Made by a program: the position numbers and the translations under genes. A DNA stretch of 64,000 bases from assembly GCA_012517325.1 (NCBI GenBank), contig JAAYVF010000130.1:1-64000 (forward strand). Reading direction: 5' to 3'. Every line of letters begins with the position of its first letter. Within the stretch, counting starts at the first letter, position 1. Shown here one piece after another: positions 30,223 to 38,435 of this stretch. The notes beneath the pieces are model-generated. The model did no database searches. It worked only from the letters and a program-made list of their open reading frames with translations, and was not told the origin of the DNA. Origin of the DNA: Myxococcales bacterium (GTDB lineage Bacteria; Lernaellota; Lernaellaia; Lernaellales; Lernaellaceae).

Positions 30223-30822
30223 TTATTCGGCCGCGGCCAGGTCGCCCAGCTCAAAGGCCTTGGCGTTGGTCGCCCGGAATTTTTCCGGCACGGCTTCGAT
30301 GACGACCCGGCGCACGGCCTCCTTTTCCACCGGCAAAGAGCGGGCGTGCGTCATCGCGCCCATGAGTACGGCGTTAACCGCCATGGCGTTGCCGGCCTGT
30401 TCCGCCAGCGCGGTCGCGTCCAGGGCGATCACCCGGCCGACCGCTGCGCGCACCTGATCCAGTATTTTTTCCAGCGGCGGGTACTTGCCTTGGCCGATCG
30501 TCACCGTGAACGGCACGATGGGCCGGGTGTTGATCACCGCCACCGTCTTGCGCGAACAGTACGGCAAGGCCCGCAAGGCCTCGAGCGGCTCGAAGGCCAG
30601 CAGAATGTCGGCGTCGCCCCGGCCGATCAGCGGGCTCTTGGCCCCGCCGATCAAAACAGTGCTTTCGACCACACCGCCGCGTTGGCTCATGCCGTGCACC
30701 TCGGAGACCGTGACGGGCAGACCGGCCGCCAGGGCCGCTTCGCCGAGCAGCCGGCTGGCCGTCAGGCTGCCCTGCCCGCCCACGCCGCAGATGTAGACTC
30801 GCGTGTTGCCATCGGGTTTCAT
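30223..30822 (-). CDS. iorB: Indolepyruvate:ferredoxin oxidoreductase beta subunit (IorB)
   Basis: 199 residues, the usual IorB length. It is the pyruvate-ferredoxin-oxidoreductase gamma-type domain (GVGGQGSLTASRLLGEAALAAG near the N-terminus, SEVHGMSQRGG, then GRGDADILLAFEPLEALR). With IorA it oxidises aryl pyruvates, made by transamination of Trp, Phe and Tyr, to aryl-acyl-CoA and reduces ferredoxin. The ATG overlaps the iorA stop in ATGA, so the two subunits are translationally coupled. An in-frame extension above 30822 lies in iorA and is not real. Confidence 0.94.
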   Translation of the reverse strand: MKPDGNTRVYICGVGGQGSLTASRLLGEAALAAGLPVTVSEVHGMSQRGGVVESTVLIGGAKSPLIGRGDADILLAFEPLEALRALPYCSRKTVAVINTRPIVPFTVTIGQGKYPPLEKILDQVRAAVGRVIALDATALAEQAGNAMAVNAVLMGAMTHARSLPVEKEAVRRVVIEAVPEKFRATNAKAFELGDLAAAE

Positions 30823-33800
30823 GAGCTTGCCTCTTTCGTCAACAAGGACACCGGGACGATGGCGCCATTGGGGCAGACCTGGACGCAGGCGCCGCAGCCG
30901 TCGCAAAGAATCGGATTGATCTGAATCCGGCCGTTGTCCTGGTAAAACGCCGGACAACCGAAATTGTCGAGGCAATTGTGGCAAGCCGCGCAAAGCCCGC
31001 AGGCCAGGCAGCGGTCCGCCTCGCGCTTGGCGTCGGCCTCGCTGAGCGAGCCCTCCACCTCCGCGAAGCCGCCGACGGCTTCCGCTACCGGCAGCGACGG
31101 CGCATGGCGGCGCGGTTCCGGTGTCAAACCGACCGGTCGATAACGCGATTCGGCCAGCATGGACTCGCGATCGCGCCAGGCTTCGCGAACGACCTTTTCC
31201 GGCTGCTCGGCCAGCGCGCGGTCGATGCCGTACGCGGCGTATTTGCCCCATTGCAGGGCCGCCACGACGCTCGCCGGACCGGTGACGGCGTCGCCGCCGC
31301 CGAAGACGAACGGATCGGCGGTCGCGCCGGTTTGCGGATCGGCCTGTATCCGTCCCCAGCGATCGACCAGTTTTTCGCCAAGGCCGGTCAGGCTCTCGTC
31401 CGCCATCTGCCCGATCGCGGAAATCAACGTATCGGCCGTCAGAACGAACGTCTGGTCCGTCGGCTCGGGACGCGGCCGACCTGATTTGTCCGGAGCGCTC
31501 AATCTCATCCGGCGGCAAGTGACGGTCAGACGCGCGCCGTCGCGCGTGATTTTTTCGGGCGCGCCCAATTCGATCAAGCCGACGCCTTCCGCGATCGCGG
31601 CCGCGATCTCGGCGCCGATCGCCGGCATTTCCGCCCGCGTCCGACGATAAAGCACGGTCACACGCGACGCCCTCAGGCGAAGCGCCGTGCGCGCCGCGTC
31701 GATCGCGCTGTTGCCGCCGCCGACGACCACAACCTCACCGGCCAGTTGCGGCTTCCCGCCGCCATTCACTTCCCGTAAAAATTGCAGCGCGTCGCGCACG
31801 CCCGGCGAATCCTCGCCCGGTATGCCCAGTGCCGCGCCGCGTGGTTGACCGAGCGCCAGAAAAACCGCGGCATAGCCATCGCGCTTCAATCCGTCCAGAT
31901 TGAAATCGACGCCGAAGCGCGCGCCGTAGCGAAAACGTACGCCCAGATCGGCGAGCATGACCAGATCCTTGTTCAGTTCCTCGCGCGGCAGGCGGTATTC
32001 CGGGATGCCCCAGCGGCAAAGGCCGCCCGCTTCGCTTTCCGCCTCGAAAATCTCGACCTCATAACCGCGCCAACGCAGATCGAAGGCGCACGACAGGCCC
32101 GCCGGGCCGGCGCCGACGACCGCGACTTTCTTGCCTTTCCCGCGAATCGTTTCCTTGAGCTTGGCGACGTAGGCGGCGCGGTCGGCCGGCGTTTCCCGCT
32201 CCATCGCGAATCGCTTGAGCGCGTTGACGGCGATCGGCTCGTCGATGTCGCCGCGCACACAGACTGCCTCGCACGGATGGTTGCAAACGCGGCAGACGAC
32301 GTGCGGCAGGATCAGGCGCTGGCGGATCAGCGCGCGCGCCTCGGCGTAGCGCCCGGCGGCGATCTGCTCGACGTATCCCTGCACGCACAGGCCGAGCGGA
32401 CAGGCCGCCTCGCACGGCGGATGCTCCATCTTCGCCGGCGCGGACTCGGGGTATAGTTCCGGCGCGTCCGGCCCGGCGGCGACCCGCGCCAACCCGCGGG
32501 CCAACGCGTAATGCCGTTGCGGCAGCAGGTCGCATTGCAGGCCTTGCGCCTTGCGGCCGCAGACCATGCAGCGGTCGTGATCGATCGCGAATTTTTCCGC
32601 CTCTTTCTTTTTGCCCGACGATTTCTTCGCGAACAGCGGACAGGCGCTCCGCGAGATCAATACATTGGTTCCCGGTTGGCGGCGCAACGCGCGGATCGTT
32701 TCCAGGCTTTCCTTGAAGTGCGTCGGATCGATCACCTCGACCCGTTCGACGCCCGCCGCGCGCGCCAGCGCCGCGAGGTCCACCGCCAGTTCGCCCTGGC
32801 TGGACGTTCCCGGATGCGGCTGGTGACCGGTCATGCCCGTGGTGCCGTTGTCCATGATGATCAGCAGTAAATCGCGGTGTTGGTGCACCGAATTGATCAG
32901 GCCCGTCAGGCCGGAATGATAAAAGGTCGAATCGCCGAGGAAGGACACGACCGGCTTGTCCTGCGTCGCGGCGAATCCGCCGGAACTGCTGGCCGATGAT
33001 CCCATGCAGATGAAGTAGTCGCCCATGCCGATCGGCGGCGCGAAGCCGAGGGTGTAGCAGCCGATGTCCGACAGGTACAACGCCTCGTCGCCGACCGCCA
33101 GCTTGACCGCGTAATACGTGGCGCGGTGCGGGCAGCCGGGGCAGAGAATCGGCGGCCGTCCCGGCAGGCTGGTCGGATCGGCCGTCGTTTCACGGTCCCA
33201 ATCCAGCCCGAGGATCTGCGTCAGCGCCGCCGTCACTACGTCGGGACCCACCTCGCCGAGCAGTGAAAAATGGCCGCTTTCCTTGCCGAAAATCGGCACC
33301 AGCTTGCCGGCGCGGACGCAGGCCGAGCGCAGTTCATCCTCGAGAATCGGGTCCAGTTCCTCGACCACCAGCGCCCGCTCGATCTCCTTCACCCAATCCG
33401 CCAACCGCCGACGGGGAACCGGATAGGACGTGGCCAGTGCGAACACCCGGACCTGGGTTTCGACGCCCAGGCGCTTGATGACATCCTCGACGTAACAGGC
33501 CGAAACGCCGCCGGTCAGAATGCCCAGGCGGCCTTCGCCCCACTGCCGGTTGAGCGGCGAGGTTTCGAATTCCGCCTCGATTTTCCGCAGGTTTTCCTCG
33601 ACCACCGGATGGCGCAGTTTAGCCACCGCCGGCACCGGGGTGAACCGGCGCTTATCGGGCACGAAACCCAGGCGGGTTTTTTCCGGCGGCAGTTCGCCGA
33701 TTGCCACCGCCGCCCGTGTGTGGCTGACGCGGGTCGTGGTGCGCAGCAACACCGGCGTCTGATGCCGTTCCGACAAAACGAAAGCCTCCTGGACCAGCCG

Positions 33801-34247
33801 ATAGGCCTCTTCGGGCGTGGCCGGTTCGAGCATCGGCAATTTGCCGAGCCGGGCGTAATGGCGGTTGTCCTGTTCGTTCTGGCTGCTGTGACAACCGGGA
33901 TCGTCCGCCGTGACCAACACCAGGCCGCCGCGCACGCCGATGTAGGACAGCGTCATCAGGGGATCGGCGGCCACGTTGACCCCGACGTGTTTCATGGCGA
34001 CCAGCGTGCGGACGCCCGCGGCAGCCGCCGCGCCGGCCACTTCCAGCGCGACTTTTTCATTGACGGAGTATTCGAAGACGACGCCGGCGTCTCCGTGCAG
34101 CTTGGCGAAGGTGTCGCCGATTTCCGAACTGGGGGTGCCGGGATACGTGGACATGAAGCCGACGCCGGCTTCCAGCGCGCCGCGCACGATCGCTTCGTTT
34201 CCGAGCAGCAGCAGGCGGGTGTTTTGTGCGGTGACCAATGGGTGCAT
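30819..34247 (-). CDS. iorA: Indolepyruvate:ferredoxin oxidoreductase alpha subunit fused to GltD-like flavoprotein
   Basis: 1142 residues, about twice normal IorA. Residues about 1-560 are IorA: pyrimidine domain with MSTYPGTPSSEIGD and the ThDP domain with PILCPGCPHRATYYAVK, GDSTF and the Mg-binding GTTGMTGHQPHP. Residues about 605-695 are an alpha-helical Fer4 module (CEAACPLGLCVQGY, CRVCNHPCEAVC) of the kind found in glutamate synthase small subunit, and 705-1010 are its FAD/NAD(P)H domains (VAVVGAGPAGLSCAF, VVVGGGNSAIDAARTAL). The last 70 residues are the 2x[4Fe-4S] ferredoxin (CLACGLCAACHNC, CDGCGACVQVCP). The GltD-like part seems inserted between the ThDP domain and the ferredoxin. The start at 34247 has GGAGCCAAGGC upstream. 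The fusion could link aryl pyruvate oxidation to NAD(P)(H). Confidence 0.93.
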   Translation of the reverse strand: MHPLVTAQNTRLLLLGNEAIVRGALEAGVGFMSTYPGTPSSEIGDTFAKLHGDAGVVFEYSVNEKVALEVAGAAAAAGVRTLVAMKHVGVNVAADPLMTLSYIGVRGGLVLVTADDPGCHSSQNEQDNRHYARLGKLPMLEPATPEEAYRLVQEAFVLSERHQTPVLLRTTTRVSHTRAAVAIGELPPEKTRLGFVPDKRRFTPVPAVAKLRHPVVEENLRKIEAEFETSPLNRQWGEGRLGILTGGVSACYVEDVIKRLGVETQVRVFALATSYPVPRRRLADWVKEIERALVVEELDPILEDELRSACVRAGKLVPIFGKESGHFSLLGEVGPDVVTAALTQILGLDWDRETTADPTSLPGRPPILCPGCPHRATYYAVKLAVGDEALYLSDIGCYTLGFAPPIGMGDYFICMGSSASSSGGFAATQDKPVVSFLGDSTFYHSGLTGLINSVHQHRDLLLIIMDNGTTGMTGHQPHPGTSSQGELAVDLAALARAAGVERVEVIDPTHFKESLETIRALRRQPGTNVLISRSACPLFAKKSSGKKKEAEKFAIDHDRCMVCGRKAQGLQCDLLPQRHYALARGLARVAAGPDAPELYPESAPAKMEHPPCEAACPLGLCVQGYVEQIAAGRYAEARALIRQRLILPHVVCRVCNHPCEAVCVRGDIDEPIAVNALKRFAMERETPADRAAYVAKLKETIRGKGKKVAVVGAGPAGLSCAFDLRWRGYEVEIFEAESEAGGLCRWGIPEYRLPREELNKDLVMLADLGVRFRYGARFGVDFNLDGLKRDGYAAVFLALGQPRGAALGIPGEDSPGVRDALQFLREVNGGGKPQLAGEVVVVGGGNSAIDAARTALRLRASRVTVLYRRTRAEMPAIGAEIAAAIAEGVGLIELGAPEKITRDGARLTVTCRRMRLSAPDKSGRPRPEPTDQTFVLTADTLISAIGQMADESLTGLGEKLVDRWGRIQADPQTGATADPFVFGGGDAVTGPASVVAALQWGKYAAYGIDRALAEQPEKVVREAWRDRESMLAESRYRPVGLTPEPRRHAPSLPVAEAVGGFAEVEGSLSEADAKREADRCLACGLCAACHNCLDNFGCPAFYQDNGRIQINPILCDGCGACVQVCPNGAIVPVSLLTKEASS

Positions 34248-34433: not shown

Positions 34434-36245
34434 ATGACCGTTCGTGGTGAAACAGTACTCGTCCTGGGCGGCTGGGGGCTGGTCGGCCGCGCCGTCTGTC
34501 ATGAACTCATGCAAGACCATCCGAAACGAATGGTTGTCTGCAGCCTCACCAAGGAGGAGGCGGAAGAAGCCGTCCGCGATCTCGAACGCGAGCGCGACCA
34601 GATGAACGAGGCGGACGGCGAAAAGATCAAAACCAGGTTCGTCGCCGAATGGGGCGATATTTTCGCCCGCCTGGAATTCAAGGATCGCAACGCCCGCGAA
34701 ATCAAGGACAACAAGGATCTGGAAAAGATCATCGACGATACGTTCAACGATCTGAAAAAAATCAATCTCGACCGGATGTTCCTGTACCACATGATCAACA
34801 AGTACAAGCCGGCGGTGGTCATCGACGCGATCAACACCGCGACCATCGTGGCCTACAAGGACATTTACGCGGCCACGCTCGACCTGCGGCTGAAGCTCGA
34901 GGCCTTGGAAAAAGCCCAGGCCGGCTCCGGCGATCTCGATCAGGCGGTCAGGGACATCGGCCACAGCATCCGCGAACACCTGTCGAGCATCTATCTGCCG
35001 CGGCTGATCCGCCACATCCAGATCATGTACCTCGCGCTGAAGAAAGTGCGGACCAAGTTCTTCGTGAAAATCGGCACCACCGGCACCGGCGGCATGGGCC
35101 TCAACATTCCGTATACGCATTCCGAGGAAAAGCCGAGCCAGAAGCTGCTGTCGAAAAGCGCGGTGGCCGGCGCCCACAGCCTGCTGCTGTTTTTGATGGC
35201 CAACACCCCGGACACGGCGTTCACCATCGAGATCAAGCCGGCGGCGGCGATTGCCTGGAAGTCGATCGATCACGGCACGGTGAAGCGCGGCAAGACGCCG
35301 ATCGCGCTGTACGACAACCCGCCGAAGAAGGCCTTCGCGCTGGGGCAGTACCTTTCGCTCGACCTGCCCTGCGCCCAGGCCGGCGACCGCATTGTCGACA
35401 CCGGCAAGGCGCTCGAGGCGGTATACATCAACACCGGCGAAAACGGTTTGTTCTCGCAGGGCGAGTTCACCGCGATCACCACGACCGGCCAGATGGAATA
35501 CGTCACGCCGGAGGAAATCGCGCGCAACGTCCGCGCCGAATTGCTGGGCGGCAACACCGGCCACGACATCATCACGGCGCTGAAAAACTCGATCATGAGC
35601 AGCACCTACCGCGCCGGGTTCATGCGCGACATGGCGATCCAACGCCTGAACAAGCTCGAAAAGGAGCACGGCGAGAGCGTGGCCTTCGAAATCCTCGGCC
35701 CGCCCCGGTTGTCGAAGTTGCTGTACGAGGCTTATCTGTTGAAGCAGGCCTACGGCACGCCCGAAAAAATCGCGGCGCAGACTCCTGCCGACATGGCCGC
35801 CAAGCTCGAAGGCCTGGTCACGAAAAACGCCGACCTGCGCCAGGCGATCATTTCCATCGGGGTGCCGATTCTGCTGAGCGACGGCGAGCGCCTGTTGCGC
35901 GGCCCGAAAATCGTCAGCCCGCCGTTCCGCGGCGACAACCAGATTCCGCTGACCCCGCGCCTGGTCGATCAATATTGCGAGGAAGGCTGGGTTGACTTGC
36001 GCGTCGCCAACCTCGCCGTCTGGCGCCAGCGGATCGAAAAGTTGACCGGCCTGCTCGACGCCGTGGATTGGTCGAAAGAAGGCGCCAACACCTCCAGCCG
36101 ATTTAATCGCAAGAACTACCTCGACGAAAGCGGTAAGCTCAACATCGGCGAGATCGTCGGCTGGATCTTCAACACCGAGGAAGGCGGCAGCCGGATGAAC
36201 TTCGTGCCCATCAAGGCTCGCCCGCTGAAGCCGCTGAAGCAGTAG
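34434..36245 (+). CDS. Rossmann-fold NAD(P)-binding protein of unknown function
   Basis: 603 residues from the ATG at 34434, eight bases after AGGAGA. It starts TVLVLGGWGLVGRAVCHEL, a GxxGxxG nucleotide-binding loop close to that of SDR/epimerase proteins, followed by a basic, charged helix-rich region with ...FNDLKKINLDRMF and VIDAINTATIVAY (about 122-134). The C-terminal 300 residues have no motif I recognise, with a repeated AEELLGGN-like helix. Frame upstream is open far to 33270 across iorA; that part is not real. Own promoter and terminator make it a monocistronic gene, which may be well expressed. Candidate for study. Confidence 0.7.
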   Translation: MTVRGETVLVLGGWGLVGRAVCHELMQDHPKRMVVCSLTKEEAEEAVRDLERERDQMNEADGEKIKTRFVAEWGDIFARLEFKDRNAREIKDNKDLEKIIDDTFNDLKKINLDRMFLYHMINKYKPAVVIDAINTATIVAYKDIYAATLDLRLKLEALEKAQAGSGDLDQAVRDIGHSIREHLSSIYLPRLIRHIQIMYLALKKVRTKFFVKIGTTGTGGMGLNIPYTHSEEKPSQKLLSKSAVAGAHSLLLFLMANTPDTAFTIEIKPAAAIAWKSIDHGTVKRGKTPIALYDNPPKKAFALGQYLSLDLPCAQAGDRIVDTGKALEAVYINTGENGLFSQGEFTAITTTGQMEYVTPEEIARNVRAELLGGNTGHDIITALKNSIMSSTYRAGFMRDMAIQRLNKLEKEHGESVAFEILGPPRLSKLLYEAYLLKQAYGTPEKIAAQTPADMAAKLEGLVTKNADLRQAIISIGVPILLSDGERLLRGPKIVSPPFRGDNQIPLTPRLVDQYCEEGWVDLRVANLAVWRQRIEKLTGLLDAVDWSKEGANTSSRFNRKNYLDESGKLNIGEIVGWIFNTEEGGSRMNFVPIKARPLKPLKQ

Positions 36246-36254
36246 GATTACGTT

Positions 36255-38435
36255 TTAAGTGATAGCGGCCGACCGGTGATGCCGGTCGGCCGATTTTTCT
36301 TTCGCTTCCCGTTTATTTTTTTTGTTTAAGTATTTTTCATAATTTTCTTTTACTCCTTCAATTTCTTCGTATTCTCGCTTTTCATAATTATATTCAGCCG
36401 CATAAAAAACAGTCACATCGTCATGATCAAAACCGTGGAGTAAAAGAATCGCCGGCCCTTCCGTCAGATTGCGACTGAACATTTCAGCGATCTCCTTTCG
36501 AATTTTATTCAAACGTTCGCGCGTCGCATCACCACGATCCTTATCGCCTCCAATATACGTTAAGGTGATGACATCGTTGTTTATCTGCATATGAAGCAGA
36601 TCGCAATAAAGCAATTTTTTGGCATTTTTTTTATATCTTTCTCGAAATTCGCTATAGCTTTCGCAATATAATGAAAATTCTCTTACAATTTCATCATTGA
36701 TTATTTTTATAACTTTTTCTTTTTTTTCAATTTCAATGTATATCCTCTTTTGCAAGTATTGACTGTATGTCTCATCTTTTTTTATTTTCACAGTATCAAC
36801 ATGCTTTTCATAATACTCAGTTAGGAGCGCCTTTTTATCATTTGTCTTTTGGAAAACATTAAATCCATAAATAGCTTTGAAAGCATCCTTCGGTTTAACG
36901 CTCTCACTTGTTCTGTCCCATTCCTGGAGTTGATCACAAAGCGATAGTAAAAAAGCAATCGGATGCTCGGTGAACTTCACGGAAAGAGATTTATAGGTAG
37001 TCTGCCTGATGTTGTGCAACGCCATTGCCGCGCAGGCTACCGCAATATCTTCTTGAATTTCTTTTCGCTTTTTTAAATATTCCTCGTGCCTACTGTTATA
37101 TGTGTACAAATAGTATGCATCGCACATTTCTTTTTTCTCGAATTTCAATCCGATTTCATGCAAATCCAAATGTAACGTTAAAAGAAGAAATAATGCGCTT
37201 GCGACCCCATGATCAAGATCTTCAATCTGCAATTGGTCTTGGAACAATGCTGTCAACGAAGTCAGCACGACCGTCTGATCCTTGAATACCGATTCGTCCG
37301 ATTCATTTGAAGATTCTTTTGTAAAGGAAAATTCATTTTCTCGAATGACACGGCTGATACGCATTAAAAGGTTTTTCACTTCGTCCTCAATGTATTTATC
37401 TCTTTTCAAATGGATATGCGAAAGAGTAAAACCGGGAACATGGTTGAAAAATTCCTCTTGCAAGGTCTTTTGCAAATATTTGAGCGATTCCGCCACATAA
37501 CCGACATCGTGAAAGAGTGAGGCAATCAACCATGTCCGCATGGTCCGAATATAAAGATCGCTGTTCGAAATATTTTCGCCGGAATATTTGATCCAGTTTC
37601 GCCGGATTTCAGGCATCAACCCTTCAAGAATCCGACAACCCATTAAAAAAACATAAATCACATGAATGAAATGGTCTCGATATTTGGATGAGAATGAGAA
37701 AAGGATTTTTTCTTGTTTTTGATAAATATCGAGCAATTCGAAGGTAAGACTTTCGGCAAAGAACAAACGAGTTAATATTCTTGCTAATTCCAAAGCGCTT
37801 TCGCTGGGATCTTCTTTTTCGGGTTCATTCTCTTTCTTGTTCAAACCTTTTGTTTTTATTTTCCATCCCGAATTCAATCGAAGTAACGAAAAATCCCTGA
37901 AAAATTTTTCGATATCTTCCTTGAACTTTTCCAATTTTTCATCATCATATTTTTTATTATATTCATCCTTACATAGATATTCCAATGCCTTATAAATGAA
38001 TTTTTTTTGATCTCCTTTATCGGATTTTCGCCAATATGCCATCTGAGTGAAATATGCCCTAGGTTGAGACAAGCAGGAAGGAAGAATATGTAGCTCAGTG
38101 AGTTTGATCAATAAAGCCCGATATTCATCACGTATCGCATGAGATTCTATAAAATCTATATTGTTAGAATGTCTAATAAACTCATTAATTATCTTTTTCA
38201 CTATTTCTTTATCTTTCGAAGTGTCCACTTTTAATTTATTCAATTGCTCGTAAAAATTCTTTTTTACATTGTTTTTATCCTTTTCTTCCAATTTTTTTAA
38301 AAATTCAGCAAGAGAGTCTTTCAAGTTCGTATCATTGCAATCAATTGAAGCAATCCCTTTGTTTAAATAAACATTGACAACAACTATATGTGCTAATAAT
38401 TTATACATTTTCACTAAATCATTGTCGTCATTCAT
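36255..38435 (-). CDS. AT-rich, HD-domain protein (putative metal-dependent phosphohydrolase)
   Basis: 726 residues, lysine-, glutamate-, isoleucine- and asparagine-rich and visibly AT-rich unlike its neighbours, so probably acquired by transfer. An HD-type metal site appears as H255/H258 in RDHFIHV, the HD pair H309-D310 in LFHDVGY, H409 in DLDHG, H474 in ALHN, H491 and D501 in LCDQLQEWDR. HD proteins cleave phosphodiesters or nucleotides. Residues 1-200 and 510-726 are helical and charged with no family I recognise. The last 12 residues (SADRHHRSAAIT) are encoded by the neighbouring gene's terminator, so the native C-terminus may be lost. GGAG eight bases before the ATG supports expression. 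A defence role is possible but unproven. Confidence 0.8.
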   Translation of the reverse strand: MNDDNDLVKMYKLLAHIVVVNVYLNKGIASIDCNDTNLKDSLAEFLKKLEEKDKNNVKKNFYEQLNKLKVDTSKDKEIVKKIINEFIRHSNNIDFIESHAIRDEYRALLIKLTELHILPSCLSQPRAYFTQMAYWRKSDKGDQKKFIYKALEYLCKDEYNKKYDDEKLEKFKEDIEKFFRDFSLLRLNSGWKIKTKGLNKKENEPEKEDPSESALELARILTRLFFAESLTFELLDIYQKQEKILFSFSSKYRDHFIHVIYVFLMGCRILEGLMPEIRRNWIKYSGENISNSDLYIRTMRTWLIASLFHDVGYVAESLKYLQKTLQEEFFNHVPGFTLSHIHLKRDKYIEDEVKNLLMRISRVIRENEFSFTKESSNESDESVFKDQTVVLTSLTALFQDQLQIEDLDHGVASALFLLLTLHLDLHEIGLKFEKKEMCDAYYLYTYNSRHEEYLKKRKEIQEDIAVACAAMALHNIRQTTYKSLSVKFTEHPIAFLLSLCDQLQEWDRTSESVKPKDAFKAIYGFNVFQKTNDKKALLTEYYEKHVDTVKIKKDETYSQYLQKRIYIEIEKKEKVIKIINDEIVREFSLYCESYSEFRERYKKNAKKLLYCDLLHMQINNDVITLTYIGGDKDRGDATRERLNKIRKEIAEMFSRNLTEGPAILLLHGFDHDDVTVFYAAEYNYEKREYEEIEGVKENYEKYLNKKNKREAKEKSADRHHRSAAIT
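36266..36299 (+). terminator. Rho-independent terminator after the Rossmann-protein gene
   Basis: Perfect 11-base stem CGGCCGACCGG / CCGGTCGGCCG with a five-base loop (TGATG), followed by ATTTTTCT. It overlaps the last codons of the convergent HD gene. Confidence 0.9.

What the first reader, a model, noticed from the sequence alone, without database searches (positions are those of the whole stretch)
30819..34247. IorA fused to a GltD-like NAD(P)H:ferredoxin-type flavoprotein
Normal IorA is about 600 residues. Here a GltD-like module with Fer4 cysteines and two nucleotide-binding motifs sits between the ThDP domain and the terminal ferredoxin. This could pass electrons between aryl pyruvate, ferredoxin and NAD(P)H inside one chain, perhaps an electron-bifurcating or reverse reaction.
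Basis: partly seen in the sequence, partly recalled or inferred. Interest (0 to 1): 0.65.

Follow-up and report, generated by a model that had tools for sequence, protein, structure and literature searches.

The report
Indolepyruvate oxidoreductase with built-in NADPH module
A bacterial enzyme that breaks down aromatic amino-acid products carries, inserted inside its own electron-carrier domain, a second enzyme that probably loads the electrons straight onto NADP or NAD, so that the cell need not use free ferredoxin.

Summary
Window 30819-34247 (-) is one open frame of 1142 aa: an IorA (TIGR03336 above cutoff) with a GltD-like Fe-S/FAD/NAD(P) module set between its ThDP part and its terminal ferredoxin, followed by iorB. 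It is not an assembly join: the fusion is a single frame in three other genomes of its small phylum (49-68% identity), present but interrupted in two more, and recurs in three genomes of two other groups. The terminal ferredoxin scores as IorA's own, so the module was inserted into IorA rather than added at its end. Best reading: an arylpyruvate:NAD(P)+ oxidoreductase (CoA-acylating) with a fixed wire ThDP - ferredoxin clusters - GltD clusters - FAD - NAD(P)+. The window clade keeps the YRR motif linked to NADP; the second clade lost it and probably uses NAD. All eight fused rows carry the lysine that ligates the FAD-proximal cluster in StnC, whose flavin does not bifurcate, and no second acceptor module was seen, so bifurcation and reverse reaction are not supported. 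In two second-clade genomes fused iorAB heads an operon resembling the indoleacetate (iaa) pathway, pointing to indolepyruvate as substrate. New variant of a known kind; no activity shown.

The parts
30819..34247 (-). Fused IorA-GltD protein, 1142 aa, stop codon included
   Evidence: single ORF; families; conserved fusion
32529..34220 (-). IorA ThDP part, residues 10-573
   Evidence: TIGR03336 residues 11-573; POR_N and TPP_enzyme_C; AF2 model matches 2-oxoacid:ferredoxin oxidoreductases 6n2n Z 33.7, 5c4i Z 33.2, 9bt4 Z 33.0
32526..32582 (-). Linker with C560-x2-C563-G and C572, residues 556-574, relic of the first ferredoxin motif of IorA
   Evidence: C in 8 of 8 fused rows; low model confidence here
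32193..32426 (-). GltD-type N-terminal [4Fe-4S] domain, residues 608-685; C612, C616, C655, C659, C663, fusion-specific C621, and Lys ligand K678 (32214-32216)
   Evidence: Fer4_20; ligand columns; K678 aligns with StnC K170
31251..32132 (-). FAD and NAD(P) double Rossmann part, residues 706-999 (GxGxxG 712-717, GGGN 843-846, YRR 867-869 at 31641-31649)
   Evidence: Pyr_redox_2; motifs; model Z 47.8 to 9bov_A
30858..31010 (-). Terminal 2x[4Fe-4S] ferredoxin domain, residues 1080-1130, of IorA type (CPAF, C-x5-CP spacing)
   Evidence: 65.5 bits with an IorA-Fd profile, 37.6 with a GltD-Fd profile
30223..30822 (-). iorB, 199 aa, start overlaps the iorA stop by 4 bases (ATGA)
   Evidence: TIGR03334 211.9 bits, cutoff 205.8; POR domain; an iorB follows the fused gene in 8 of 8 fused genomes whose next gene is held

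Best explanation
The fused IorA with IorB is a self-contained arylpyruvate (indolepyruvate-type) : NAD(P)+ oxidoreductase that makes arylacetyl-CoA. ThDP decarboxylates the 2-oxoacid. Electrons leave one by one through the terminal IorA ferredoxin domain (two [4Fe-4S]), pass to the two [4Fe-4S] clusters of the inserted GltD-like domain, the FAD-proximal one ligated by a lysine, and reach FAD, which hands a hydride to NADP+ (window clade, YRR) or NAD+ (second clade, YRR lost). It is a non-bifurcating, oxidation-directed wire that replaces diffusible ferredoxin. Shown: architecture, conservation, origin of the terminal ferredoxin, motif states, operon context. Inferred: cofactor content, order of transfer, nucleotide preference, substrate, direction.
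For: IorA and IorB equivalog models above cutoff. Fusion kept as one frame across genera and families and in other phylum-level groups. All Fe-S, FAD and NAD(P)-fold positions kept in 8 of 8 fused rows, save the last five columns in contig-truncated L128. GltD module structurally closest to the modules of Nfn-ABC and StnC, Z 46-48 over 466-468 residues. K678 = StnC K170; StnC FAD reported non-bifurcating and the lysine needed for activity. YRR reported to mark NADP use in DsrL-2/NfnB, while DsrL-1 prefers NAD. Second clade: fused iorAB, HyuA, HyuB, acyl-CoA dehydrogenase, B12-type mutase and CaiB-like in the same order in G212 and G123, a molybdenum hydroxylase also in G212, matching parts of the indoleacetate pathway. 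Functional precedent: phenylglyoxylate:NAD+ oxidoreductase (title seen in the reference list of PMC5109826).
Against: No biochemical data. The linker with three invariant Cys is poorly modelled (block means 48-79 for residues 561-610) and the relative placing of the two halves is not secure (pTM 0.67), so the wire is not shown to be short enough. Two usual ligands of the distal GltD cluster (NfnB C39/C42) are missing next to C612. The aminotransferases near the two second-clade operons are only 26% identical to each other and are not shown to act on tryptophan. The window genome has no iaa-type HyuB, so its substrate rests on IorA similarity alone. It also holds an unfused iorAB.
Confidence: 0.7

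Rival explanations
1. A three-way redox hub: the enzyme oxidises arylpyruvate and equilibrates electrons between free ferredoxin and NAD(P)H, as an Ior plus a ferredoxin:NADP+ reductase in one chain; which way it runs depends on the cell.
For: The terminal ferredoxin domain is complete and of IorA type, so docking of free ferredoxin may persist; the GltD-type module of NfnB reduces ferredoxin.
Against: A fixed wire makes free ferredoxin unnecessary; an unfused, presumably ferredoxin-type iorAB is kept in the same genome, which would make the second use redundant.
Confidence: 0.18
2. Flavin-based electron bifurcation or confurcation at the GltD FAD, for example arylpyruvate plus a second donor or acceptor with NADP(H).
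For: The fold is that of NfnB/StnC, parts of bifurcating complexes, and the arginine equivalent to NfnB R201 is kept (R752).
Against: Lys instead of Glu on the FAD-proximal cluster in 8 of 8 fused rows, the state of non-bifurcating StnC (StnC keeps the arginine too, so it does not discriminate). Neighbour genes in the window show no second acceptor module.
Confidence: 0.05
3. NAD(P)H-driven reductive carboxylation of arylacetyl-CoA to arylpyruvate (amino-acid synthesis direction).
For: Ior-type enzymes can run in reverse with strongly reduced ferredoxin (recalled).
Against: NAD(P)H is too weak a reductant for this couple (recalled potentials); the second-clade operon is catabolic in make-up.
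Confidence: 0.03
4. A fused protein whose GltD part is a structural or regulatory leftover without electron transfer to NAD(P).
For: The IorA/IorB pair alone would work with ferredoxin.
Against: FAD, NAD(P)-fold and Fe-S positions are kept over divergence down to 41% identity.
Confidence: 0.04

Closest known systems
Indolepyruvate:ferredoxin oxidoreductase IorAB (TIGR03336/TIGR03334)
   Same: ThDP half, terminal 2x[4Fe-4S] ferredoxin, separate IorB; both models above cutoff
   Different: An insert of about 500 residues with Fe-S, FAD and NAD(P) sites inside the ferredoxin domain; predicted acceptor is NAD(P)+, not ferredoxin
StnC / NfnA of the Stn and Nfn-ABC transhydrogenases
   Same: GltD-like module with Lys at the proximal cluster; 39-42% identity, Z 46-48 (paper passages)
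   Different: There the module is joined to NuoG-like Fe-S domains and works with a separate bifurcating pair; here it is joined to IorA
DsrL (iron-sulfur flavoprotein of DsrAB)
   Same: Order Fe-S domain, FAD/NAD(P), linker, terminal 2x[4Fe-4S] ferredoxin; NAD and NADP variants told by YRR
   Different: Separate protein partnering sulfite reductase; the authors set aside look-alikes linked to 2-oxoacid:ferredoxin oxidoreductase genes, so adjacency of the two modules was already noticed
Phenylglyoxylate:NAD+ oxidoreductase PadEFGHI
   Same: Aromatic 2-oxoacid to acyl-CoA with NAD+ (title seen in a reference list; a GltD-like subunit is recalled)
   Different: Several separate subunits; the IorB here scores 19.5 bits against a cutoff of 300 for PadE
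Pyruvate:NADP+ oxidoreductase (recalled)
   Same: 2-oxoacid:ferredoxin oxidoreductase fused to an NADPH flavoprotein
   Different: Different flavoprotein (cytochrome P450 reductase type), pyruvate as substrate, end-to-end fusion; not compared here

Membership tests
IorAB | IorA equivalog model score | tested here: met
   710.1 bits, cutoff 650.9
IorAB | Separate IorB gene in tandem | tested here: met
   TIGR03334 211.9 bits, cutoff 205.8; ATGA overlap
IorAB | Terminal 2x[4Fe-4S] ferredoxin of IorA type | tested here: met
   59.5-72.4 bits in 7 fused domains (8 rows given, L128 cut by its contig end); IorA controls 51.2-71.2 (these trained the profile), GltD-Fd controls 13.7-30.8
IorAB | Chain of about 600 aa without a flavoprotein | tested here: not met
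   1142 aa against a median of 623 in 100 unfused frames
IorAB | Arylpyruvate as substrate | not testable with these tools
   operon context in G212 and G123 is indirect
GltD (glutamate synthase small subunit) | Curated GltD model scores | tested here: not met
   TIGR01316 262.6 bits, cutoff 471.75; TIGR01318 233.5, cutoff 482.95
Bifurcating NfnB | Glu ligand on the FAD-proximal cluster | tested here: not met
   Lys in 8 of 8 fused rows
Bifurcating NfnB | Arg near flavin N5 | tested here: met
   R752 aligns with StnC R239; R in 8 of 8 fused rows; equivalence of R239 with NfnB R201
StnC/NfnA type | Lys at the proximal cluster and GltD-like fold | tested here: met
StnC/NfnA type | Joined NuoG-like domains | tested here: not met
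   none among the Pfam matches of the chain
DsrL | Domain order after the IorA half | tested here: met
   Fer4_20, Pyr_redox_2, Fer4
DsrL | dsrAB in the genome | not tested
   no search made
PadEFGHI | PadE gamma model for the IorB partner | tested here: not met
   19.5 bits, cutoff 300
PRK12771 (GltD with ferredoxin) | Curated model score | tested here: not met
   451.5 bits, cutoff 516

The most novel reading that the evidence does not exclude
A ferredoxin-free indolepyruvate dehydrogenase: the fusion carries an extra, fusion-specific Fe-S site (C560, C563, C572, C621: in 8 of 8 fused rows; C621 in 0 of 26 unfused GltD-type rows) that bridges IorA and the flavoprotein. In the second clade it feeds tryptophan carbon as indoleacetyl-CoA straight into an iaa-type (auxin) degradation operon with NADH as the product, in place of the CoA ligase.
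Probability: 0.3. Interest if true: 0.72.

Novelty: new variant of a known kind. Interest (0 to 1): 0.55.

Why it matters
Ior enzymes are known as makers of low-potential ferredoxin. A version wired to NAD(P) gives up that energy for an irreversible, carrier-independent step, which would change how aromatic amino-acid catabolism is drawn from genome annotation: the IorA model calls these chains plain Ior. The two clades differ in the NADP-marking motif, so they offer a natural pair for testing what sets nucleotide choice, and a Lys at the proximal cluster outside Stn-type enzymes is a direct test of what makes a GltD-type flavin bifurcate or not.

Tried and rejected
Assembly join: rejected by single-frame orthologs. 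Simple end-to-end fusion with a GltD-ferredoxin protein of the PRK12771 type: not favoured; the terminal ferredoxin scores as IorA's, and the chains of that type in the sample have Glu where the fusion has Lys. Unfused Desulfovibrio-like IorA as the scar of a lost module: looked for in 14 tails and dropped, as their first ferredoxin motif is degenerate in many different ways. Fusion or adjacent GltD in the 80 IorA loci of genome contigs: 0 of 80 within the flanks held (the 80 are the best of at least 578). Fusion in 297 genomes of the class of G029: none; 231 have a close unfused IorA, best 764 bits over the ThDP half. One or two origins: not settled. In the group test, which sets the two clades against each other only, each is one side of a branch (support 100 on the ThDP tree, 98 on the GltD tree); as drawn, the window clade's own branch has 93 and 86, and the joining of the two clades is unresolved. 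The four shared cysteines speak for one origin. Print: in the held library, searches listed no paper on this fusion; I saw listings only, and most subscription papers are not held. (386 genomes around G212) mostly repeated the sample. PADLOC gave nothing for the two unnamed neighbours.
Full report
Observation. The frame 30819-34247 on the minus strand encodes 1142 aa from an ATG at 34247. Its first half is IorA by a curated model above cutoff (TIGR03336, 710.1 against 650.9; residues 11-573), and its second half holds Fer4_20, Pyr_redox_2 and Fer4. iorB follows with a 4-base overlap (30223-30822; TIGR03334 211.9 against 205.8). Unfused IorA frames among the fetched loci have a median of 623 aa (n = 100, range 523-715; pieces of broken or partial genes dropped).

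Not an artefact. Of the 7 genomes held for the phylum, window included, 4 have the fusion as one open frame (window, G001, G005, G003), 2 have it broken (G002 at an NN gap, G006 by a frame change in the linker) and 1 (G004) has no match. A profile of the four intact chains (A1), run over 386 genomes sampled across the domain, found 8 with the fusion: those 6 plus G212 and G123. Searching the group of G212 added G387: 2 of 5 genomes there, and 1 of 2 in the group of G123. G123 and G387 run into contig ends. G212 and G387 are listed with 6% and 9% contamination, G123 with 1%, so their host assignment is less sure. None of 297 genomes in the class of G029, whose unfused IorA is close to the fused ones, has the fusion, and none of the 80 kept genome contigs IorA loci has it or an adjacent gltD within the flank held.

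How it is built. Aligning fused chains with unfused IorA and unfused GltD-type chains (A2, 76 rows) puts the insert inside the first cysteine motif of the IorA ferredoxin domain: the linker keeps D-x3-C-x2-C-G, and the C-terminus has the full domain again. Profiles made from 36 IorA ferredoxin domains and 11 GltD-type ones (of 41 and 26 rows given; the others did not fit the motif pattern) were run on 7 fused domains (of 8 rows; L128 is cut by its contig end). IorA profile: 59.5-72.4 bits; GltD-type profile: 28.1-40.2. So the terminal ferredoxin is IorA's own. The stretch just before it (RCLxCGxC) is GltD-like.

What the module is. An AlphaFold2 model (A2; mean pLDDT 88.9, pTM 0.67) gave as closest solved structures the Nfn-ABC chain 9bov_A (Z 47.8, 468 residues, 42% identity), 9n5v_A (47.1) and StnC 8oh5_C (46.1), then NfnL 5jca_L (40.0), and for the N-half 2-oxoacid:ferredoxin oxidoreductases (6n2n 33.7, 5c4i 33.2, 9bt4 33.0). 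According to passages of PMC10482914, the StnC FAD is non-bifurcating, its FAD-proximal cluster is ligated by K170 in one state where NfnB has Glu, and K170 changed to Ala or Cys loses physiological activity. I recovered K170, R239 and C114 by numbering the aligned chain. Fused K678 aligns with K170 and is Lys in 8 of 8 fused rows; among 26 unfused GltD-type rows 17 have Lys and 9 Glu. R752 aligns with R239. C621, one place from the C114 column, is Cys in 8 of 8 fused rows and in 0 of 26 unfused. With C560, C563 and C572 of the linker (8 of 8) this makes four cysteines found in all fused rows; they may complete the distal cluster, two of whose NfnB-type ligands are missing, or hold a further one. 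The linker is modelled poorly, so this is open.

Which nucleotide. YRR (867-869) is present in 5 of 5 window-clade rows and in 0 of 3 second-clade rows (C-L-E, E-R-E, S-L-E). PMC7596348 (abstract, sections 14 and 18, and passages) links YRR to NADP use in DsrL-2 and NfnB, and reports that DsrL-1 prefers NAD. I infer NADP for the window clade and NAD for the second.

Which substrate. In G212 and G123 the fused iorA and iorB are followed in the same order by HyuA, HyuB, acyl-CoA dehydrogenase, a methylmalonyl-CoA-mutase-type protein and a CaiB-type CoA-transferase (Pfam for all but the G212 CaiB, which I recognised only by its likeness to the G123 chain), with a B12-binding protein annotated in G123 and a molybdenum hydroxylase and a 3-hydroxyacyl-CoA dehydrogenase/hydratase in G212. 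Identities between the two: fused IorA 56, IorB 43, HyuA 65, HyuB 78, acyl-CoA dehydrogenase 69, mutase 73%. PMC8360864 (introduction and passages) gives a CoA-transferase IaaL, mutase IaaGH and dehydrogenase IaaF after indoleacetyl-CoA in indoleacetate degradation, and PMC5214803 (passages) places predicted 2-oxoindoleacetyl-CoA lactamases among the hydantoinases. The match of parts makes indolepyruvate, giving indoleacetyl-CoA, the likely substrate there. Against: the curated models did not name these proteins as iaa members, the nearby aminotransferases are only 26% alike, and the window phylum lacks this HyuB: of its 7 genomes only G001 has any match, at 28%. So for the window protein arylpyruvate rests on IorA similarity only. 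The window genome also has an unfused iorAB.

Mechanism. ThDP chemistry as in other 2-oxoacid:ferredoxin oxidoreductases, then the built-in ferredoxin clusters, the GltD clusters, FAD and NAD(P)+. The potential drop (about -0.5 V to about -0.32 V, recalled) makes the step run toward acyl-CoA. Nothing found offers a second acceptor, and the Lys state is that of a non-bifurcating flavin. Phenylglyoxylate:NAD+ oxidoreductase is the functional precedent (its title seen in the reference list of PMC5109826; subunit details recalled).

Trees. On the ThDP tree (49 rows) and the GltD tree (34 rows) each fused clade stands apart from the other (group test 100 and 98), but whether the two clades are sisters is unresolved; the quick method was used.

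Verdict. Real, conserved and sensible; a new variant of a known kind. Interest 0.55: no activity is known, and an NAD-linked relative made of separate subunits exists.

Noticed in passing
window 36255-38435 (-): A 726-aa open frame of 35% G+C in a 61% G+C window, no Pfam or PADLOC match; in G001 (L151) the two genes that flank it here lie next to each other, so it looks like an insertion. It contains an HD-like FHDVGY stretch (seen by eye).
   Followed up: partly
window 34434-36245 (+): A 603-aa protein without a Pfam match, divergent from iorA, with a Rossmann-like start; a close relative lies divergent to the fused gene in G001 as well (L151 5961-7775).
   Followed up: partly
L014, L038, L041, L051, L167-L169, L172-L176: Unfused IorA of Desulfovibrio-like genomes has lost a variable part of the first ferredoxin cysteine motif, often leaving one clear cluster; this group lies near the fused clades on the ThDP tree.
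   Followed up: partly
L154 4369-20000, L155 3300-17430: iaa-like operon headed by the fused iorAB in two phylum-level groups, with HyuAB nearer to caprolactamase than to acetophenone carboxylase models, all below cutoff.
   Followed up: partly
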